29,876 bases of DNA, taken from positions 1 through 29,876 of the forward strand of contig CAUJJP010000136.1 in NCBI GenBank assembly GCA_963205525.1. The letters run 5' to 3'. Below are positions 2,657-14,831 of this stretch, piece by piece. Both the position numbers and the translations under genes were made by a program. This stretch comes from Pseudomonadota bacterium (GTDB lineage Bacteria; Pseudomonadota; Gammaproteobacteria; Burkholderiales; Burkholderiaceae). Numbering within the stretch: the first letter of the stretch is position 1; each line of letters opens with the position of its first letter. The notes below the pieces were generated by a model. That model was not told the origin of the DNA and ran no database searches. It saw only the letters and a list, made by a program, of their open reading frames with translations.

Positions 2657-4948
2657 ATGATCAGCGCCTTCATCGTCGTCTGGCGCGAGAGCCTGGAGGC
2701 GCTGCTCGTGATCACCGTGCTGCTGGCCTGGATCACGCGCCAGGATGAGCCCGCCGTGCTGCGGCGTGGCGTCTGGGCCGGGCTGGCCGGCGGGCTGGCG
2801 CTCGCAGTCGCCCTCGGCGCCGCCACCTTTGCCGTCAGCAGCCAGCTCCAGGGCGAGGCTCTGGAGGTCTTCCAGGCCGCGATGGCGCTCGTCTCGGCGG
2901 CCCTGATCCTGCAGATGGTGGCCTGGATGCGGCGCCACGGCGCGGGCATGAAGCGCGAGCTGGAGTCGCGTGCCAGCGGCGCTTCGGGCAGCTCGGGCGC
3001 GCTCGGCGTGGCCCTGGTGACGGCGCTGGCGGTGGCACGCGAGGGCGCGGAGACGGTGGTCTTTCTGTACGGCATCGGCCTCGAGCACGGGGCCGAGGGC
3101 GCGCCCGCGCTGTGGGCCGGCGGCGCCGGTGGGCTGGCGCTGGCGCTGGCCTGCGCCTGGATCATCGCCCGCGGGGCGCGCCACCTGAACATGCGCACCC
3201 TGCTGCGCGCCAGTGAGATCATGCTGCTGGCGGTCGCCACCGCCATGCTGGGCCACGGCGTCGAGCGTCTGATCGGCCTGGAGTGGCTGCCCACCCTGGC
3301 CGACCCGCTGTGGGACACGAGCGCGCTGCTCGACGACCGCGCCGGCATCGGCCGCGTGCTCGCCGACTTCGCCGGCTACCGTGCCCTGCCCACCGGCACC
3401 CTGGTGCTGGCCTACGCCGTGTTCTGGGGCCTGGCGCTGATCGCCCTGCGTCCGCGCGCCGCGCAGCCTGCGGCCGTGGCGCGCGCCACCAGAGGAAGCG
3501 TCCCGCGGCAGGACCCGATGCGCAGCATCCCCATCGTCGTCGAGGCGGCTCAGGTCGGCAGTTCGCCGTCGGCCGCGCGCGGCCGGCTGGCCTGGCTGGG
3601 TGACCTGCTGCGGCGGCACCGGCGCGCCATCGTCGCCCTCCAGTGGGGCGTGGTGCTGTGCTATGCGGTGCTGGTGGTGGTGCCGGCCTTCCTGCCGCTG
3701 CCCGAATCGGGGGCGAGCATGGTCTCCAACCTCAGGCTGGCGGCGCAGTTCGCGTTCTGGGGTGTCTGGTGGCCTTTCGTCATCCTCAGCGTGATGGCGC
3801 TCGGGCGCAGCTGGTGCGGCCTGCTGTGCCCGGAGGGCATGCTCACCGAGCTCGCGAGCCGTCACGGCCTGGGACGCAGCATCCCGCGCTGGATGCGCTG
3901 GTCGGGCTGGCCGCTCGTCGCCTTCTTCGGCACCACGATCTACGGCCAGCTCCTGAGCGTCTACGAGTACCCGGACGCGACCCTGCTCATCCTGGGCGGC
4001 TCGACGCTGGCGGCGCTGGCGGTGGGCGCGCTCTACGGGCGCGGCGGCAAGCGCGTCTGGTGCCGCTACCTGTGCCCGGTGACCGGCGTCTTCGGCCTGC
4101 TGGCCAAGCTTGCGCCGCTGCACTACGCGACCGACGCCGAACGCTGGCAGCGCAACCACGGCGCGCCCGAGCGCGTCGACTGCGCGCCGCTGCTGGACCT
4201 GCGCCACCTGCAGAGCGCCTCTGACTGTCACGCCTGCGGCCGCTGCAGCGGCCACCGCGGGGGTGCGATCGCGCTGCGCTGGCGCTCGCCCAACCAGGAG
4301 GTGCTGCAGACGCCCGTAGCCCGTGCCGGTGCCAATCCCTATCCGGCGCGGCTGCTCGTGTTCGGCCTGCTTGGCCTTGCGCCGGGTGCCTTCCAGTGGA
4401 GCGCCCACCCCTGGTTCGTCGCCATCAAGCAGGGCGCGGCGCAGTGGCTGATCGAGAACGACCACGTCGGCTTCTTCTTCCGCGACGACCTGCCCTGGTG
4501 GCTGCTGACCCAGCAGCCCGAGGCCGGCGACGTGTTCAGCGTCCTCGACGGCCTGTCCATCCTCGCCTTCATGCTGGGTGCGACCCTGCTGCTGGGCGGT
4601 GCGAGCTGGCTCGCGCTGCGCGCCGCGGCCTGGGCTTGCGGCCGCGCGCGCAGCCACTGGCAGGTGCTGGCGATGGCGCTCATCCCGATGGCGGGCATAG
4701 GCCTGTTCCTCGGCCTGTCGATGATGACCCTGACCCAGTTGCGCGCCGAGGGCATCGTCCCCGGCTGGACGGCGGCGGCGCGTGCGACGCTGCTGGCGGC
4801 GGGCGCGATCTGGTCGGGCTGGCTGGCGGCGCGCCTGGTGGCGCAGCAGACGCCGGATCCGGCGCGGCGCGCCCTGGCCTGGCTGTGCATGCTGACGCCG
4901 GTGGCGCTGCAGCTCGCGGTCTGGGGCCGCATGTTCTTCGTGCGCTGA
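2657..4948 (+). CDS. FTR1 iron permease fused to NapH/FtrD-type polyferredoxin
   Basis: A 763-residue polytopic inner-membrane protein made of two parts. Residues 1 to about 275 are an FTR1/EfeU-type permease with both REXXE iron-binding motifs visible: RESLE at 10-14 and REGAE at 128-132. A polar linker (about 278-312) leads into a second membrane half with cysteine motifs of NapH/CcoG-like polyferredoxins: WCGLLCPEG (C387, C391), WCRYLCPVTG (C469, C473), and DCHACGRCSGH (C524, C527, C530). In Bordetella ftrC (permease) and ftrD (polyferredoxin) are separate genes; here there is no stop between them. The polyferredoxin is thought to take electrons left by iron oxidation. ATG at 2657 is preceded by ACAGGA seven bases upstream. 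It is the last gene of the operon. Confidence 0.9.
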   Translation: MISAFIVVWRESLEALLVITVLLAWITRQDEPAVLRRGVWAGLAGGLALAVALGAATFAVSSQLQGEALEVFQAAMALVSAALILQMVAWMRRHGAGMKRELESRASGASGSSGALGVALVTALAVAREGAETVVFLYGIGLEHGAEGAPALWAGGAGGLALALACAWIIARGARHLNMRTLLRASEIMLLAVATAMLGHGVERLIGLEWLPTLADPLWDTSALLDDRAGIGRVLADFAGYRALPTGTLVLAYAVFWGLALIALRPRAAQPAAVARATRGSVPRQDPMRSIPIVVEAAQVGSSPSAARGRLAWLGDLLRRHRRAIVALQWGVVLCYAVLVVVPAFLPLPESGASMVSNLRLAAQFAFWGVWWPFVILSVMALGRSWCGLLCPEGMLTELASRHGLGRSIPRWMRWSGWPLVAFFGTTIYGQLLSVYEYPDATLLILGGSTLAALAVGALYGRGGKRVWCRYLCPVTGVFGLLAKLAPLHYATDAERWQRNHGAPERVDCAPLLDLRHLQSASDCHACGRCSGHRGGAIALRWRSPNQEVLQTPVARAGANPYPARLLVFGLLGLAPGAFQWSAHPWFVAIKQGAAQWLIENDHVGFFFRDDLPWWLLTQQPEAGDVFSVLDGLSILAFMLGATLLLGGASWLALRAAAWACGRARSHWQVLAMALIPMAGIGLFLGLSMMTLTQLRAEGIVPGWTAAARATLLAAGAIWSGWLAARLVAQQTPDPARRALAWLCMLTPVALQLAVWGRMFFVR

Positions 4949-4974: not shown

Positions 4975-5010
4975 AAAAAAATGGAGCCCCGACGCAGCGC
5001 CGCAGGCTCC
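4975..5010 (-). terminator. Intrinsic terminator (minus strand)
   Basis: Outer stem GGAGCC/GGCTCC (5010-5005 with 4988-4983) plus an inner five-pair stem with one G-U pair and a CTG loop, followed on the minus strand by ATTTTTTT (4982-4975, complement of the A-run). This is a textbook rho-independent terminator facing left, toward the end of the iron operon. On the plus strand the A-run lies before the stem, so it would not work well for the iron operon. Confidence 0.7.
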
Positions 5011-5057
5011 AGAAGGTTCGCTTCTATCCGCCCCAACCACAGAGTGTCCGGGGCGGG
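4975..5057 (-). ncRNA. Candidate small RNA with three adjoining hairpins
   Basis: Read on the minus strand from about 5057 down, the sequence folds into three hairpins with almost no spacer. Hairpin 1 (5056-5028): CCGCCCC pairs with GGGGCGG, with an upper CAC/GTG stem closed by UCU. Hairpin 2 (5025-5011): AGAAG-CGAAC-CTTCT. Hairpin 3 (5010-4983): GGAGCC pairs with GGCTCC, with an inner CGGCG/CGTCG stem and a three-base loop, followed at once by A and seven T (4981-4975). A TACAAT -10-like box lies four bases before hairpin 1 (5066-5061). No minus-strand protein gene lies to the right for this terminator to serve, so a stand-alone RNA of about 80 nt is the simplest reading. I do not recognise an Rfam family. 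The -35 region is poor. Confidence 0.5.
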
Positions 5058-5060
5058 TTC

Positions 5061-5109
5061 ATTGTATTTGAGCAAATGCGTACGCCTACTGCGGACTTCC
5101 ACGTAGGCG
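5061..5109 (-). promoter_or_regulatory. Putative promoter and operator region of the candidate RNA
   Basis: TACAAT on the minus strand (5066-5061) fits a sigma-70 -10 box with a start near 5054-5057. The -35 position (about 5083-5089) reads GTAGGC/TAGGCG, a poor match. That position lies in an inverted repeat, CGCCTAC (5083-5089) and GTAGGCG (5103-5109), and two further palindromes, ATTTGAGCAAAT (5066-5077) and GCGTACGC (5078-5085), overlap the spacer. Poor -35 plus palindromes suggests control by a DNA-binding protein; this is inference. Confidence 0.3.
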
Positions 5110-5161: not shown

Positions 5162-5209
5162 CGATGCGTGCTGCGGGCAGGCTTGGCGCTCCGGCTCGGC
5201 GCTGCCGGG

Positions 5210-5274
5210 TGGCGCTCCCGGATGGCGCTCCCGGGTGGTGCTCCCGGGTGGTGCTCTCGGGTGGTGCTCTCGGG
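5210..5274 (+). repeat. 13-bp tandem repeat, five units
   Basis: Five head-to-tail copies of a 13-mer: TGGCGCTCCCGGA, TGGCGCTCCCGGG, TGGTGCTCCCGGG, then TGGTGCTCTCGGG twice. The last two are identical, suggesting recent slippage duplication. The array ends 43 bases before the rmuC start codon, inside what should be its leader. Confidence 0.85.
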
Positions 5275-5317
5275 TGATGCGCGTGCGCGGTGGCAGCGGC
5301 GCGCGGACAATGCCGCG

Positions 5318-6739
5318 ATGGCTGACGCGAACCCCGATCTGTGGCTGCTGACGGCGCTGCTCGCGCTGGCGGTGGCGACCCTGCTGACCCTGCTGTGGCT
5401 GGCGCTGCGGCGCCGCGACCCGGCGGCCCTGCAGCGCATCGAGCTGCTCGAGCGCGCGCTGCGCGACGAGCTGGGCCGCCATTCCCAGACCACGCGCACC
5501 GACCTGGCCGGTGTCCAGCAAGGCCTGATCGCGCAATCGGGCGAGGTGGCACGGCTGCACAACGATCAGATCGACGCCCTGCGGCTGCAGATCGCCGCCA
5601 CCCAGGGCACGCTGAGCCAGCAGGCGCAGGCGCAGCAGGCCGCCCTGGCGCAGCAGGCGCAGACCCTGCAGGCGGCGCTCACCCAGCAGGCGCAGGCCTT
5701 GCAGGCGGCGCTGGTGCAGCAGTCGCAGGCCGCGCGCGATGCCCAGGACGCCGCCTTGCGCCGGCTCGGCGAGGCGATGGAGCAGCGATTGCACCGCCTG
5801 CAGGAGGGCAACGAGGCGCGGCTGGAGCAGATGCGCGCCACCGTCGACGAGAAGCTGCACGCCACCCTGGAGCAGCGCCTGGGCGAGAGCTTTCGCCAGG
5901 TGGCAGAGCGGCTGGAGCAGGTGCACCGCGGGCTGGGCGAGATGCAGCACCTGGCGCGCGACGTCGGCGCCCTGAACCGCGTCCTCACCAACGTGAAGAC
6001 ACGCGGCGTGTTCGGCGAGGTGCAGCTCGCCGCCTTGCTGGAGCAGGTCTTCACGCCCGAGCAGTACGCACGCAACGTGGCCACCCTGCCGGGCAGCCGC
6101 GAGGTGGTGGAGTTCGCGATCCGGCTGCCCGGGCAGCGCGCCGATGGGGCGCCGCTGTGGCTGCCGATCGATGCCAAGTTCCCGCGCGAGGACTACGAGC
6201 GCCTGCTCGAGGCGCACGAGCGCGCCGACCCGGTGGCGGCGGAGGCGGCGGCCAAGGCGATCGAGACCCGGCTGCGGCTGGAGGCGCGCAGCATTCGCGA
6301 GAAGTACGTCGGCCCGCCGCACACGACCGACTTCGCGATCCTGTTCCTGCCCACCGAGGGGCTGTACGCCGAGGCCTTGCGCCGGCCCGGGCTGAGCGAG
6401 GCGCTGCAGCGCGAGCACAAGGTCATGCTCGCCGGCCCGACCACCTTGCTCGCCACCCTGAGCAGCCTGCAGATGGGCTTTCGCACCCTGGCGCTGGAGA
6501 AGCGCTCGGCCGAGGTCTGGGAGGTGCTGGGGGCGGTGAAGACCGAGTTCGGCAAGTTCGGCGAGGTGCTCGCGAAGACGAAGAAGAAGCTGGAGGAAGC
6601 CGGCAACACGATAGAGGCCGCCGAGGTGCGCACGCGCGCGATGGCGCGCCAGCTGCGCGGCGTGGAGGCGCTGCCGGAAGGCCGCGCCGCGCAACTGCTG
6701 CCGGCCGTGGCGGGCAGCGACGAAGCCGCCGTCGAATGA
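5318..6739 (+). CDS. rmuC: DNA recombination protein RmuC
   Basis: A 473-residue RmuC-family protein, close to the E. coli length. One N-terminal membrane segment (about 8-30) is followed by a long Gln/Ala-rich coiled coil (about 35-170) and the RmuC domain with its PD-(D/E)XK-like fold (about 190-440), showing RGVFGEVQLAALLEQVF, LPIDAKFPREDYERLL and HTTDFAILFLPTEGLYAE. RmuC limits inversions and short-repeat recombination and is believed to be a membrane-tethered nuclease. A start 50 codons upstream would translate the 13-bp repeat into Arg/Gly-rich sequence, so ATG 5318 is chosen. Within the coiled coil, residues 101-144 consist of four 11-residue repeats. The stop overlaps the start of the next gene (ATGA). 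Confidence 0.93.
   Translation: MADANPDLWLLTALLALAVATLLTLLWLALRRRDPAALQRIELLERALRDELGRHSQTTRTDLAGVQQGLIAQSGEVARLHNDQIDALRLQIAATQGTLSQQAQAQQAALAQQAQTLQAALTQQAQALQAALVQQSQAARDAQDAALRRLGEAMEQRLHRLQEGNEARLEQMRATVDEKLHATLEQRLGESFRQVAERLEQVHRGLGEMQHLARDVGALNRVLTNVKTRGVFGEVQLAALLEQVFTPEQYARNVATLPGSREVVEFAIRLPGQRADGAPLWLPIDAKFPREDYERLLEAHERADPVAAEAAAKAIETRLRLEARSIREKYVGPPHTTDFAILFLPTEGLYAEALRRPGLSEALQREHKVMLAGPTTLLATLSSLQMGFRTLALEKRSAEVWEVLGAVKTEFGKFGEVLAKTKKKLEEAGNTIEAAEVRTRAMARQLRGVEALPEGRAAQLLPAVAGSDEAAVE
5618..5749 (+). repeat. 33-bp in-frame repeat in rmuC, four units
   Basis: Units start at 5618, 5651, 5684 and 5717 and encode QQAQAQQAALA, QQAQTLQAALT, QQAQALQAALV and the diverged QQSQAARDAQD. 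An 11-residue period is a hendecad, compatible with a nearly straight, slightly right-handed coiled coil. Confidence 0.8.
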
Positions 6740-11658: not shown

Positions 11659-12273
11659 TCAGGCCTTGCTCTGCGCGCCGAGGGCGATCTTCAGCAGGTC
11701 GGCCACCGTGTTGGCGGCGAGCTTTTCCATGATGTTGGCGCGGTGCGCCTCCACCGTCTTGATGCTGATGCCCAGGTCGTCGGCGATCTGCTTGTTCAGC
11801 CGCCCGGCGACGATGCGCTCCAGCACCTGGCCCTCGCGCGTGGTCAGGCGTGACAGCAGGGCGTCGCGGCTGGCCTGTTCCTGGTGCTGGCTGAAGGCGC
11901 TGCGCGCCTGATCGAGCATGCGCTCCACCAGCGACAGCAGTTCTTCTTCCTTGAACGGCTTCTCGATGAAGTCCATCGCCCCCTTCTTCATCGTCGTCAC
12001 TGCCATCGGCACGTCGCCGTGACCGGTGATGAAGACGATGGGCAGCGGGCTCTTGCGCTCGACCAGCCGGTCCTGCAGTTCCAGCCCGCTCATGCCGTCC
12101 ATGCGGATGTCGGCGATCAGGCAGGCCACTTCACGCGGATCGAAGCGGGCGAGAAAGGACTCCGATGAATCGAAGCACTTGACGCGGTAGTCCTTGCCTT
12201 CGAGCAGCCACTGCAGAGAGTCGCGCACCGCCTCGTCGTCGTCGACGACGTAGACCGTGCCTTTCTTCGGGAT
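11659..12273 (-). CDS. FixJ/TodR-type response regulator, start codon unresolved
   Basis: A receiver plus LuxR-type HTH regulator of about 205 residues. The receiver shows the acidic cluster [12 protein letters not shown], the phospho-acceptor Asp in [15 protein letters not shown], and the conserved Lys in EKPF. The C-terminal HTH is [36 protein letters not shown]. The first canonical start in frame is GTG at 12228, but this would remove the acidic cluster. Between the upstream in-frame stop (12321-12319) and 12228 there is no ATG, GTG or TTG. Protein-like sequence begins at about [10 protein letters not shown] (12273, an ATC codon), which I use as the left limit of homology, not as a claimed start. 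A single-base change in the C6 run (12290-12285, minus strand) would join this frame to a GTG at 12334. It is the partner of the upstream kinase. Confidence 0.8.
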
Positions 12274-14831
12274 CCGGCTCTTGCGGGGGGTCGGGGTGGG
12301 TTGGTGGAACCGCCCGCGTCAGCGGTGTCGGCACAGCGGGCCGCCAGTTCCACCGGCAGCGTGAACGAAAATCGGCACCCGGCGACCTGGTCGCCATTGT
12401 AGAGGGTCTCCGCGCGCATGCGGCCGCGGTGCGACTCGACGATGGTGCGGCAAAGGCCCAGCCCTATGCCCAGGCCGTCGGGCTTGGTGGAGAAGAAGGC
12501 CTCGTACAGGCGCTCCAGCGTCTGCGCCGGCAGCCCCGGGCCCTGGTCGGTGACGCTGAACTCGATCACCCCGCCTTCCTCGGCGGTGTGGCGCGGCACC
12601 ACGCGCAGCTCGATGTGGCGGCGCGGCGGTGCCATCTCGGCGCCGTCTATCGCCTCGGCGGCGTTCTTCAGCAGGTTCAGCAGCACCTGCTCGATGAGGA
12701 TGGGGTCGACCATCAGCAGGGGCAGGCGCTGGGCGACGTAGACGCGGATCGCGACGTGGCGCCGGCGCAGCTCGATGCTCGCGAGCTCGACCGCGTCCTC
12801 CACGATCTTGCTCGCCTGCGAGGGCTGGCGCTGCGGCTCGCTGCGCTTCACGAAGGCGCGGATGCGGTGGATGATCTGGCCCGCCCGCTGCGCCTGGCGC
12901 GCGGTCTTCTGCAGCGCGGCGACGAGGTCGTCCTTGTCTATGGTGTCGGCCTGCACGCGCGAGACCATGCCGTTGCAGTAGTTGGTGATCGCGGTCAGGG
13001 GCTGGTTCAGCTCGTGCGCCACCGAGCTCGCCATCTCGCCCATGGTCACCAGCCGGCTCGTCACCTGCGCCTTCTCGGCCTGCGCGTCGGCGATCTCCTC
13101 GGCGCGCACGCGCGCCGTGATGTCGGTGGCGATCACCATCTGCGCGAGCCGGCCGTCGGTCCACTGCAGATAGCGCGCGCGCACGTCGAACCACTTCTGG
13201 CGCGACTCCACGAAGACCTCGCGCGGGTGGATGCCGGCCTCGGTGAGTTCGTGCGCCGGCAGCCCGGAGAGCTCGTCGTAGTCCTCGGACACGGTGGGCT
13301 CCTCGTCGCCGTGGCTGCCGGCGAGCACCGCATGCCCGCGCGGATCGCTGCCGAACCACAGGCGGTAGGAGCGGTTCACGAACAGCAGCTCGCGCTGCTG
13401 CACCGAGAGCACCGAGACCGAGGCGTCCAGCCCCTCGAGCACGGTGGTGAAGCGCTCGTGGCTGGCCGAGAGCTGGTCGCGGATGCGCTTGGCCTCGGTG
13501 ATGTTGGTGACGCTGGTCATCCAGCCGGTCTGCTGGCCCTTGGGGTCGACCAGCGGCGAGATGTACATGCGGGCGTCGAACTGGGTGCCGTCCTTGCGCA
13601 GCACGCGCACCTCGATGCCGCCGGTCGGGCTGCGCCCCTGCAGCTCCTGCTGCAGCATGCGCATGTTCTCCTCGATGCGGTTCTTCGGCCAGTAGGGGAA
13701 GGGCGGCGTGCAGCCGACCAGCTCCGCCTCGGTGAAGCCGACCATGTTGCAGAACGAGGCGTTGACGTAGGTGATGCGGCCTTCCAGGTCGAGTGCGCGC
13801 ATGCCGGTGGGCATGGAGTTCTCCATCGCGCGCCGGAAGTTGGTCTCCAGCATCAGCTCGCGCTGGATCTGCGCGCGCCGGCGCATGTGGCGCCAGCTGC
13901 CCAGCAGCATCCAGACCGTCAGCACCGACAGCGCCACCACCATCCAGAACAAGGTGTTGCCGATGAGGCCGATGGAGGTCCGGTAGCCCTCGCCGCGCAG
14001 CACCAGACCGTTCAGCGCGGGTACCAGCGGCAGCTCGTGGGCGATCGCGCGCCGACGCAGCTCGGCACCCGGCATCGCGGTCACCGAGCTGGCATAGGTG
14101 TGGCCGCCCAGGTCGACCACGCTGATGCGGTGACGCGCGGTGAACTCGGACGACACCTCGTGGCGCAGCAGGGCGTCGACCGCGTACTCCACCACCAGCA
14201 CGCCGTCGAAGGTCGAGCCGTCCACCAGCGGCACGTAGAGCTGGAACACCGCCGCGCCATTGCCGTCGCTGAACACGCTGGAGTAGGTGGGCAGCAGGCG
14301 CTCGCTGGCCAGGGCGAAGGCCTCTGCGGCCGGGTTGCCCGAGACGGGCTGCGAGGCGCGCGCCACCGCCTCGTCGGGCGCCAGCACGCCGTAGTGCAGC
14401 GGCGACCACTGCAGCGTCAGCGGCTTGCGGCGCGCGTCGTACCAGGCCATGTGGGTGATCTCGGGCCGGTCGCGCAGAAAGGTCTGCAGCACCTGCGGCA
14501 GGGCATCGGCGTCGACCTGGCGCGCCGACAGCCCGCCGGCCAGGCGCACCAGCTGCTCCTGGTTCTGGATCAGGCGCAGGCTGATCTGCTGCTGGATGAG
14601 CTCGACGTCGCGCTTGACCGACTCCACCTCGCGCTCGAATTCCTCGTTGCGCAGGTACCAGAAGGCCGAGATGATCGCCGCCAGGAACAGCAGCACCGAC
14701 ACCAGCGGCGCGACGGTGATGAAGCGGTCCTGGCGTGCCGGCGACTGCTGGCGCCACCAGCGCCCGAACAGACGCGACAGGCCGCTGGCCGTGAGGGGAG
14801 CCGCCGACGGCGGGCGGGTGGCCGAGGTCAT
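12117..14831 (-). CDS. Membrane PAS sensor histidine kinase
   Basis: A 904-codon frame. TM1 is at about 37-60, a periplasmic sensor region at 61-288 and TM2 at 289-311. Two PAS domains follow (about 335-455 and 460-585), then the HisKA box MASSVAHELNQPLTAI with the phospho-acceptor H606 and an ATPase domain with DQGPGLP and GLGIGLGLCRTIVESH. The layout resembles DctB/FixL-type kinases paired with LuxR-type regulators. Recognisable kinase sequence ends at about FTLPVELAARC (near 12330). The following 70 or so residues (Arg/Ser/Thr-rich) are an out-of-frame reading of the response regulator, so the true stop is probably lost through an indel or the genes overlap unusually. Divergent from aceE. 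The signal is unknown. Confidence 0.88.
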   Translation of the reverse strand: MTSATRPPSAAPLTASGLSRLFGRWWRQQSPARQDRFITVAPLVSVLLFLAAIISAFWYLRNEEFEREVESVKRDVELIQQQISLRLIQNQEQLVRLAGGLSARQVDADALPQVLQTFLRDRPEITHMAWYDARRKPLTLQWSPLHYGVLAPDEAVARASQPVSGNPAAEAFALASERLLPTYSSVFSDGNGAAVFQLYVPLVDGSTFDGVLVVEYAVDALLRHEVSSEFTARHRISVVDLGGHTYASSVTAMPGAELRRRAIAHELPLVPALNGLVLRGEGYRTSIGLIGNTLFWMVVALSVLTVWMLLGSWRHMRRRAQIQRELMLETNFRRAMENSMPTGMRALDLEGRITYVNASFCNMVGFTEAELVGCTPPFPYWPKNRIEENMRMLQQELQGRSPTGGIEVRVLRKDGTQFDARMYISPLVDPKGQQTGWMTSVTNITEAKRIRDQLSASHERFTTVLEGLDASVSVLSVQQRELLFVNRSYRLWFGSDPRGHAVLAGSHGDEEPTVSEDYDELSGLPAHELTEAGIHPREVFVESRQKWFDVRARYLQWTDGRLAQMVIATDITARVRAEEIADAQAEKAQVTSRLVTMGEMASSVAHELNQPLTAITNYCNGMVSRVQADTIDKDDLVAALQKTARQAQRAGQIIHRIRAFVKRSEPQRQPSQASKIVEDAVELASIELRRRHVAIRVYVAQRLPLLMVDPILIEQVLLNLLKNAAEAIDGAEMAPPRRHIELRVVPRHTAEEGGVIEFSVTDQGPGLPAQTLERLYEAFFSTKPDGLGIGLGLCRTIVESHRGRMRAETLYNGDQVAGCRFSFTLPVELAARCADTADAGGSTNPPRPPARAGSRRKARSTSSTTTRRCATLCSGCSKARTTASSASIHRSPFSPASIRVKWPA

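What the first reader, a model, noticed from the sequence alone, without database searches (positions are those of the whole stretch)
4975..5057. Undescribed-looking small RNA on the minus strand between the iron operon and rmuC
Three hairpins adjoin with only two unpaired bases between the first two and none before the last. The last is a strong two-part stem followed by seven T. A TACAAT box sits right before hairpin 1. No protein gene on this strand could need the terminator. Its position antisense to and just downstream of an iron-uptake operon makes an iron- or redox-linked role conceivable, but that is speculation.
Basis: partly seen in the sequence, partly recalled or inferred. Interest (0 to 1): 0.7.

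Follow-up and report, generated by a model that had tools for sequence, protein, structure and literature searches.

The report
Undescribed small RNA with osmotic-type promoter
This looks like a real, uncatalogued small-RNA gene of betaproteobacteria; in relatives it usually sits beside a chloride channel and a regulator gene, and its promoter carries a DNA pattern also found before some genes for coping with salt and water stress, so the suggested link to iron is not supported.

Summary
Minus strand 5078-4975 carries a -10 box, two stable hairpins with a weak one between, and a U-tail. Rfam has no match. Homologues form a family of 44 loci found here, 38 of them in one genus. In the 44-row alignment the first stem covaries (15 of 19 pairs overall have double changes) and the terminator is fixed. 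The window belongs to a divergent subgroup of four, tied to the rest by promoter, layout and synteny; a model of the RNA body alone does not find it.

The promoter palindrome YATTTGNNCAAATR overlaps the -10 box and also precedes sucrose-phosphate synthase, MscS and glycine-betaine-binding genes (7 of 30 sites; 6 are sRNA promoters, 17 others have no evident osmotic role). A ClC gene flanks the RNA in 38 of 44 loci. In the main genus a MarR gene occurs in 25 of 25 RNA-positive genomes tested and 3 of 19 negatives, usually within 3 kb; but in the genus nearest the window 36 genomes have this MarR without a detected RNA.

Best reading: a standalone, probably trans-acting sRNA of an osmotic-stress regulon, perhaps repressed by that MarR. 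Transcription, binding and targets are untested. None of 43 other loci has the iron genes.

The parts
5065..5078 (-). 14-bp promoter palindrome CATTTGCTCAAATA (YATTTGNNCAAATR), candidate repressor operator overlapping the -10 box
   Evidence: Only exact match in the 29,876-base window, 0 in 100 dinucleotide shuffles; ATTTGNNCAAAT is exact in the 21 members of the first set, which were selected by it, and in 14 of 23 members found by the model
5061..5066 (-). -10 box TACAAT; no -35 consensus; inferred RNA start about 5054
   Evidence: Sequence and coordinates; TACANT or TATANT at the same place in most relatives
4975..5054 (-). predicted small RNA, about 80 nt (start inferred, end at the U tail)
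   Evidence: Fold z -3.39; homologue at the same place beside rmuC in L001, L083 and L085
5028..5056 (-). hairpin 1, kept as a stem in the four-member window subgroup (31 of 32 cells paired, two pairs with double changes; not beyond shuffles with 4 sequences)
5011..5025 (-). linker AGAAGCGAACCUUCU: weak hairpin in the window, conserved mainly as sequence (AGAAGCGACCUU in L001, L083, L085); candidate seed
4983..5010 (-). intrinsic terminator hairpin GGAGCC...GGGGCUCC
   Evidence: terminator helix 100% paired in 43 distinct rows
4975..4981 (-). U7 tail
5318..6739 (+). rmuC, divergent neighbour; also divergent from the RNA in L001, L083, L085 and in L199, L200, L215, L238
   Evidence: Pfam RmuC; tblastn
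2657..4948 (+). FTR1/NapH-like iron permease gene convergent with the RNA; a neighbour seen only in the window
   Evidence: no homologue in the 43 other loci

Best explanation
It is a standalone small-RNA gene of a family with no Rfam entry. Shown by comparison: a conserved promoter core (palindrome over the -10 box), a 5' stem kept by compensatory changes in the main group, a linker containing AGCGA or CGAG in most members, and a U-tailed terminator, with no conserved reading frame. Inferred: a repressor, most likely the MarR protein encoded nearby in most relatives, sits on the palindrome and blocks RNA polymerase. Osmotic or ionic stress releases it together with sucrose-phosphate synthase, MscS and glycine-betaine uptake, whose promoters carry the same palindrome in some relatives. 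In most main-group members an activator site (GGGN4CCC about 43 bp upstream of the inferred start) adds a second input; the window's subgroup lacks it. The roughly 80-nt RNA (about 65-70 nt in the main group) then base-pairs with mRNAs through its linker and 5' hairpin loop, probably with Hfq or ProQ on the U tail, to adjust envelope or transport proteins.
For: No Rfam match. All 44 candidate loci given to model R1 match it, 15 of them used to build it; the window, not used, at E 5e-4. In the alignment 15 of 19 pairs have double-sided changes, 59 cells against 25.0 +/- 4.2 shuffled and at most 17 in slid controls. No closed ATG ORF of 8 or more codons in 44 RNAs, 3 of 44 if GTG/TTG count. Palindrome: 30 sites in 11 genomes against 1 for the reversed control; 6 are sRNA promoters, 6 sucrose-phosphate synthase and/or MscS (4 of these 6 new in that search), 1 a glycine-betaine binding protein (families checked on one example each). 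MarR in 25 of 25 sRNA-positive and 3 of 19 negative genomes (Fisher p 2e-9, not corrected for kinship); in 24 of 25 it is on the sRNA's contig within 3 kb. Two sRNAs each with its own MarR in G477, G506 and G083. GGGN4CCC in 26 of 40 main-group members, its centre 19-20 bp from the palindrome in all 26.
Against: A model of the RNA body without the promoter does not find the window at E up to 5, and finds L001, L085 and L083 only at E 2-3. With four sequences the subgroup's stem covariation is not beyond shuffles (52 of 500). In the 44-row alignment three of the 12 first-stem pairs are unpaired in most sequences. In the genus of G001, 39 of 81 genomes have this MarR (E up to 1e-20) but only 3 a detected sRNA, and G201 and G521 have two MarRs but one sRNA. 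17 of the 30 palindrome sites lie inside genes or before genes of no evident osmotic role, and the 11 genomes were chosen as RNA-positive, some with sites already known. In 17 MarR loci inspected no exact palindrome lies outside the sRNA promoter. ClC and MarR are not beside the RNA in the window. Two genomes keep MarR-ClC without the RNA (L335, L337). No expression data.
Confidence: 0.57

Rival explanations
1. A real small RNA, but not osmotic: the palindrome is a general operator or promoter element, and the upstream GGGN4CCC box (perhaps a carbon-status regulator's site) is the main control.
For: AAGGGTWWNCCCTW also precedes, by eye, CoA-transferase, DctA and TRAP-type C4-dicarboxylate genes; 17 of 30 palindrome sites are not at sRNA or osmotic genes.
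Against: The palindrome recurs at SPS/MscS in 6 of 11 genomes and at glycine-betaine uptake in one; the GGG box is absent from the window subgroup (0 of 4).
Confidence: 0.28
2. A leader or attenuator of marR: the terminator controls read-through into the MarR gene.
For: MarR is the next recognised gene on the same strand in L001, L114, L215, L245, L257, and in L238 after a ClC remnant.
Against: In 35 of 44 loci an apparently intact ClC gene lies downstream on the opposite strand, and the window has no plausible same-strand gene downstream.
Confidence: 0.06
3. A terminator or DNA hairpin with no RNA product, serving the convergent iron or ClC gene.
For: It sits just past the 3' end of the convergent gene in the window and most relatives.
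Against: The U run is on the sRNA strand; the promoter is conserved; the 5' stem covaries.
Confidence: 0.06
4. An iron- or redox-regulated antisense RNA to the iron operon.
For: Position beside the FTR1 gene in the window.
Against: 0 of 43 other loci has these genes; the RNA ends 26 nt short of the gene.
Confidence: 0.03

Closest known systems
Enterobacterial osmotic or envelope sRNAs (MicF, OmrA/OmrB, RprA; recalled, not retrieved)
   Same: Short, standalone, own regulated promoter, hairpin plus intrinsic terminator; stress input (inferred here)
   Different: No Rfam match to any family; promoter logic is a palindrome over the -10 box and a linked MarR, not OmpR or Rcs (recalled); targets unknown
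CosR/EctR MarR-type osmotic repressors (PMC7876524, passages read)
   Same: MarR-type repressors of compatible-solute and glycine-betaine genes
   Different: No CosR/EctR model is among the NCBIfam hits of the linked MarR and no CosR sequence was compared; whether it binds this palindrome is unknown; no sRNA appears in the passages read
Betaproteobacteria repeated element and Bordetella sRNAs (PMC3110155, passages read)
   Same: Non-coding elements in related bacteria, including Rhodoferax
   Different: A repeat in many copies in some genomes (up to 29 in the table passage seen); here 1-2 copies with recurrent neighbours; sequences not compared

Membership tests
Standalone bacterial small RNA gene | Own promoter, not shared with a downstream gene | tested here: met
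   Conserved -10 and palindrome; in 35 of 44 loci the downstream ClC gene is on the opposite strand
Standalone bacterial small RNA gene | Intrinsic terminator at the 3' end | tested here: met
   Terminator helix 100% paired in 43 distinct rows
Standalone bacterial small RNA gene | RNA structure under selection | tested here: met
   44-row alignment, mostly main group. The window subgroup alone is inconclusive with 4 sequences
Standalone bacterial small RNA gene | No conserved coding | tested here: met
Standalone bacterial small RNA gene | Transcript observed | not testable with these tools
   No RNA-seq available
Any Rfam 15 family | Match at or above gathering score | tested here: not met
   Window and 20 relatives; none at E up to 0.5 for six more; for the window only microRNA chance hits far below threshold
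R1 sRNA family defined here | Promoter plus RNA match to model | tested here: met
   Window E 5e-4, 32.7 bits, not used to build the model
R1 sRNA family defined here | RNA body alone matches | tested here: not met
   Window not listed at E up to 5; kinship rests on promoter, layout and synteny through L001, L083, L085
Osmotic-stress regulon | Operator shared with osmotic genes | tested here: met
   7 of 30 sites in 11 related genomes; not tested in the window's own genome
Osmotic-stress regulon | Induction by osmotic shock | not testable with these tools
   Needs expression data
CosR/EctR regulon | Linked MarR is a CosR/EctR orthologue | tested here: inconclusive
   MarR domain present; best NCBIfam match Saro_0803, far below its cut-off
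marR leader/attenuator | Same-strand regulated gene directly downstream | tested here: not met
   MarR directly downstream in 5 of 44 loci, or 6 counting L238 with a ClC remnant between

The most novel reading that the evidence does not exclude
A three-part turgor module: an ion- or chloride-sensing MarR repressor, a ClC chloride channel and an sRNA that travel together and in three genomes are duplicated together, the sRNA being the post-transcriptional arm of a regulon that also drives MscS and sucrose synthesis. The window's lineage kept the sRNA at its rmuC site after ClC and MarR were lost from beside it.
Probability: 0.27. Interest if true: 0.72.

Novelty: new member of a known kind. Interest (0 to 1): 0.55.

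Why it matters
Regulatory RNAs of these betaproteobacteria seem little charted (my impression): literature searches combining small RNA with rmuC, Comamonadaceae, osmotic stress in Burkholderia, MarR/ClC, Rubrivivax or Rhodoferax listed no paper recognisably about this one (listings only, open-access papers, 10 of 19 shown for rmuC). If true, the promoter palindrome gives a testable operator for an osmotic regulon in this group and names a candidate regulator.

Tried and rejected
Iron or antisense role: rejected. Rfam identity: none. MarR leader: at most 6 of 44. Terminator for the convergent gene: the U run is on the other strand. The middle hairpin as a conserved helix: weak. Plasmid collection: no match. 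Order-wide model search: 1 of 399 genomes, only the seed genome G423, but with strict filters and 11 candidates scored per genome, so it says little about absence. Of 80 rmuC loci, some cut off before the upstream region, only L001 carries a copy detectable by similarity or motif. In the genus of G001, 3 of 81 genomes carry it by BLAST and motif; the other hits that I inspected were terminator-only or chance matches, and more diverged copies could be missed. Most coding-region palindrome hits were set aside as chance. Completeness of the 19 sRNA-negative genomes is not given by the tool; one of them (G501) holds a copy without promoter. RNA-only model as an independent test of the window: negative. 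Literature on CosR motifs and on SPS/MscS regulation: nothing usable. On re-checking I lowered two odds slightly (best explanation 0.60 to 0.57, novel case 0.30 to 0.27) because 36 genomes of G001's genus have the MarR without a detected RNA and two genomes have two MarRs but one RNA; the first rival rose from 0.25 to 0.28.

Full report
Observation. The minus strand between the FTR1 gene (stop at 4948) and rmuC (start 5318) contains TACAAT (5066-5061), hairpins at 5056-5028, 5025-5011 and 5010-4983, and U7 (4981-4975). The fold is better than 199 of 200 dinucleotide shuffles (z -3.39). Hairpins 1 and 3 carry the stability; the middle one is weak. Rfam 15 has no family for it.

Relatives. The window's own genome is not held. 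A scan with its RmuC gave 80 loci. One of them, L001, has the RNA at the same place, divergent from rmuC. L001 then led to G033 (L083) and G006 (L085) among 81 genomes of its genus, a genus that also holds genomes whose contigs are titled Rubrivivax sp.. All four share CATTTGNTCAAATACANT, a GC-rich hairpin, a linker GGAYAGAAGCGA(A)CCUU and a terminator. A pattern search of 399 family genomes matched 10, of which four carry the RNA, G083 and G423 being new. The genus of G423 (89 genomes, unnamed by the tool) proved rich: 15 genomes by pattern and 21 of 40 further genomes by a covariance model, one of them (G490) weakly. The other 34 genomes of that genus were not searched with the model. G083 has two copies.

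Structure. Model R1 (15 sequences, promoter included) matches all 44 candidate loci given to it, including the window (E 5e-4) and its three close relatives, none of which was used to build it. On the 44-row alignment (43 distinct) 83.7% of cells pair, 15 of 19 pairs have double-sided changes and 59 cells covary, against 25.0 +/- 4.2 in shuffles and at most 17 in slid controls. All 12 pairs of the 5' stem vary on both sides, but three of them are unpaired in most sequences and the stem as a whole is 72.8% paired. That alignment is fitted to the structure; the unfitted 15-row alignment A3 gives 8 pairs (14 of 500 shuffles reach this) and 17 cells against 6.9 shuffled (0 of 500), while the number of pair types is not beyond shuffles. 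Its structure was drawn from the same sequences. A model of the RNA without the promoter finds L114, L257, L259 and the promoterless L336 copy, but not the window, and L001, L083 and L085 only at E 2-3. The window subgroup is therefore divergent in its RNA body. Its link to the main group is the promoter, the hairpin-linker-terminator layout and shared neighbours. Within the subgroup 31 of 32 stem cells pair, with two double changes, too few sequences to exceed shuffles. No ATG reading frame of 8 or more codons lies in any of 44 RNAs; 3 of 44 have one if GTG/TTG count.

Neighbours. Downstream of the RNA lies a ClC gene in 38 of 44 loci: 35 convergent, two on the same strand (L244, L249) and one remnant (L238). 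In five more (L001, L114, L215, L245, L257) a MarR gene follows on the same strand. The window has the iron operon instead, and none of 43 other loci does. In G006 and G033 the order is rmuC, sRNA, ClC, MarR. In 44 genomes chosen by sRNA status (G083 and 43 of G423's genus) this MarR occurs in 25 of 25 positives and 3 of 19 negatives (Fisher p 2e-9, not corrected for kinship). In 24 of the 25 it lies on the sRNA's contig within 3 kb; in G487 it is a partial copy on another contig. G477, G506 and G083 have two sRNAs, each near its own MarR; G201 and G521 have a second MarR without a detected sRNA. Of the three exceptions among the negatives one carries a copy whose promoter is gone (L336) and two show another gene in its place beside ClC (L335, L337). 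The 25 positives given to one search are part of 40 positive genomes known then. Against a tight link: in the genus of G001, 39 of 81 genomes have this MarR (46-63% identity outside the three best) but only three have a detected sRNA; those three do have the three best MarR matches (100, 81 and 71%).

Promoter. The palindrome YATTTGNNCAAATR overlaps the -10 box. It occurs once in the window and in 0 of 100 shuffles, and 30 times in 11 genomes against one site for the reversed pattern. The 11 genomes were chosen as RNA-positive, some of them with sites already seen. Six sites are sRNA promoters; six stand before sucrose-phosphate synthase and/or an MscS channel (G475, G476, G497, G498, G511, G531; those of G475, G476, G498 and G531 were new); one stands before a glycine-betaine binding protein. 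The SPS, MscS and OpuAC assignments were confirmed on one example each, the rest by eye. The other 17 sites, all looked at, lie inside genes or before genes without an evident osmotic role. A further MscS-like gene in G032 (L125) and a glutamine-synthetase-like gene in G358 (L113, two copies) also have the ATTTGNTCAAAT core upstream (by eye). In 17 MarR loci inspected the exact palindrome occurs only at sRNA promoters. GGGN4CCC, centred 19-20 bases upstream of the palindrome, occurs in 26 of 40 main-group members (0.27 expected) and in 0 of 4 of the window subgroup. If the start is about 7 nt after the -10 box its centre is near -43, a classical activator position (recalled).

Interpretation. 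Supported by comparison: an sRNA gene with its own promoter and terminator, under structural selection in the main group, usually beside ClC and MarR genes, with an operator-like palindrome shared with some osmotic genes. Inferred: MarR binds the palindrome; osmotic or ionic stress is the signal; the RNA acts in trans through the AGCGA or CGAG linker. Not shown: transcription in any strain, and any target.

Noticed in passing
L282, L287, L298 (about 1501-1514) and L301 (about 1800-1813): Divergent MscS and sucrose-phosphate synthase genes share one intergenic palindrome; in L282 and L287 its arms reach 16 bp (GCACCAATTATATTTG in L282). A candidate osmotic operator.
   Followed up: partly
L304, L308, L315, L321, L327 (about 1501-1514): AAGGGTWWNCCCTW boxes like the one upstream of the sRNA precede, judged by eye from translations, TRAP/DctA C4-dicarboxylate and CoA-transferase genes; a response-regulator site is a guess.
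   Followed up: partly
window 2657-4948: FTR1 iron permease fused to a NapH-like 4Fe-4S (Fer4_5) membrane domain in one 763-aa ORF.
   Followed up: no
window 5184-5280: GC-rich tandem array of a 13-base unit (about 7 copies) between the sRNA promoter and rmuC.
   Followed up: no
L238: ClC fragments (40- and 51-aa matches) between the sRNA and MarR in G477, a likely intermediate in loss of ClC.
   Followed up: partly
L336 5780-5877: An sRNA copy next to ClC keeps its 3' half and terminator while another reading frame lies where the promoter would be.
   Followed up: partly
window 11659-14831: FixJ-like LuxR-type response regulator (below the FixJ cut-off) and, by eye, a large sensor-kinase gene on the minus strand.
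   Followed up: no
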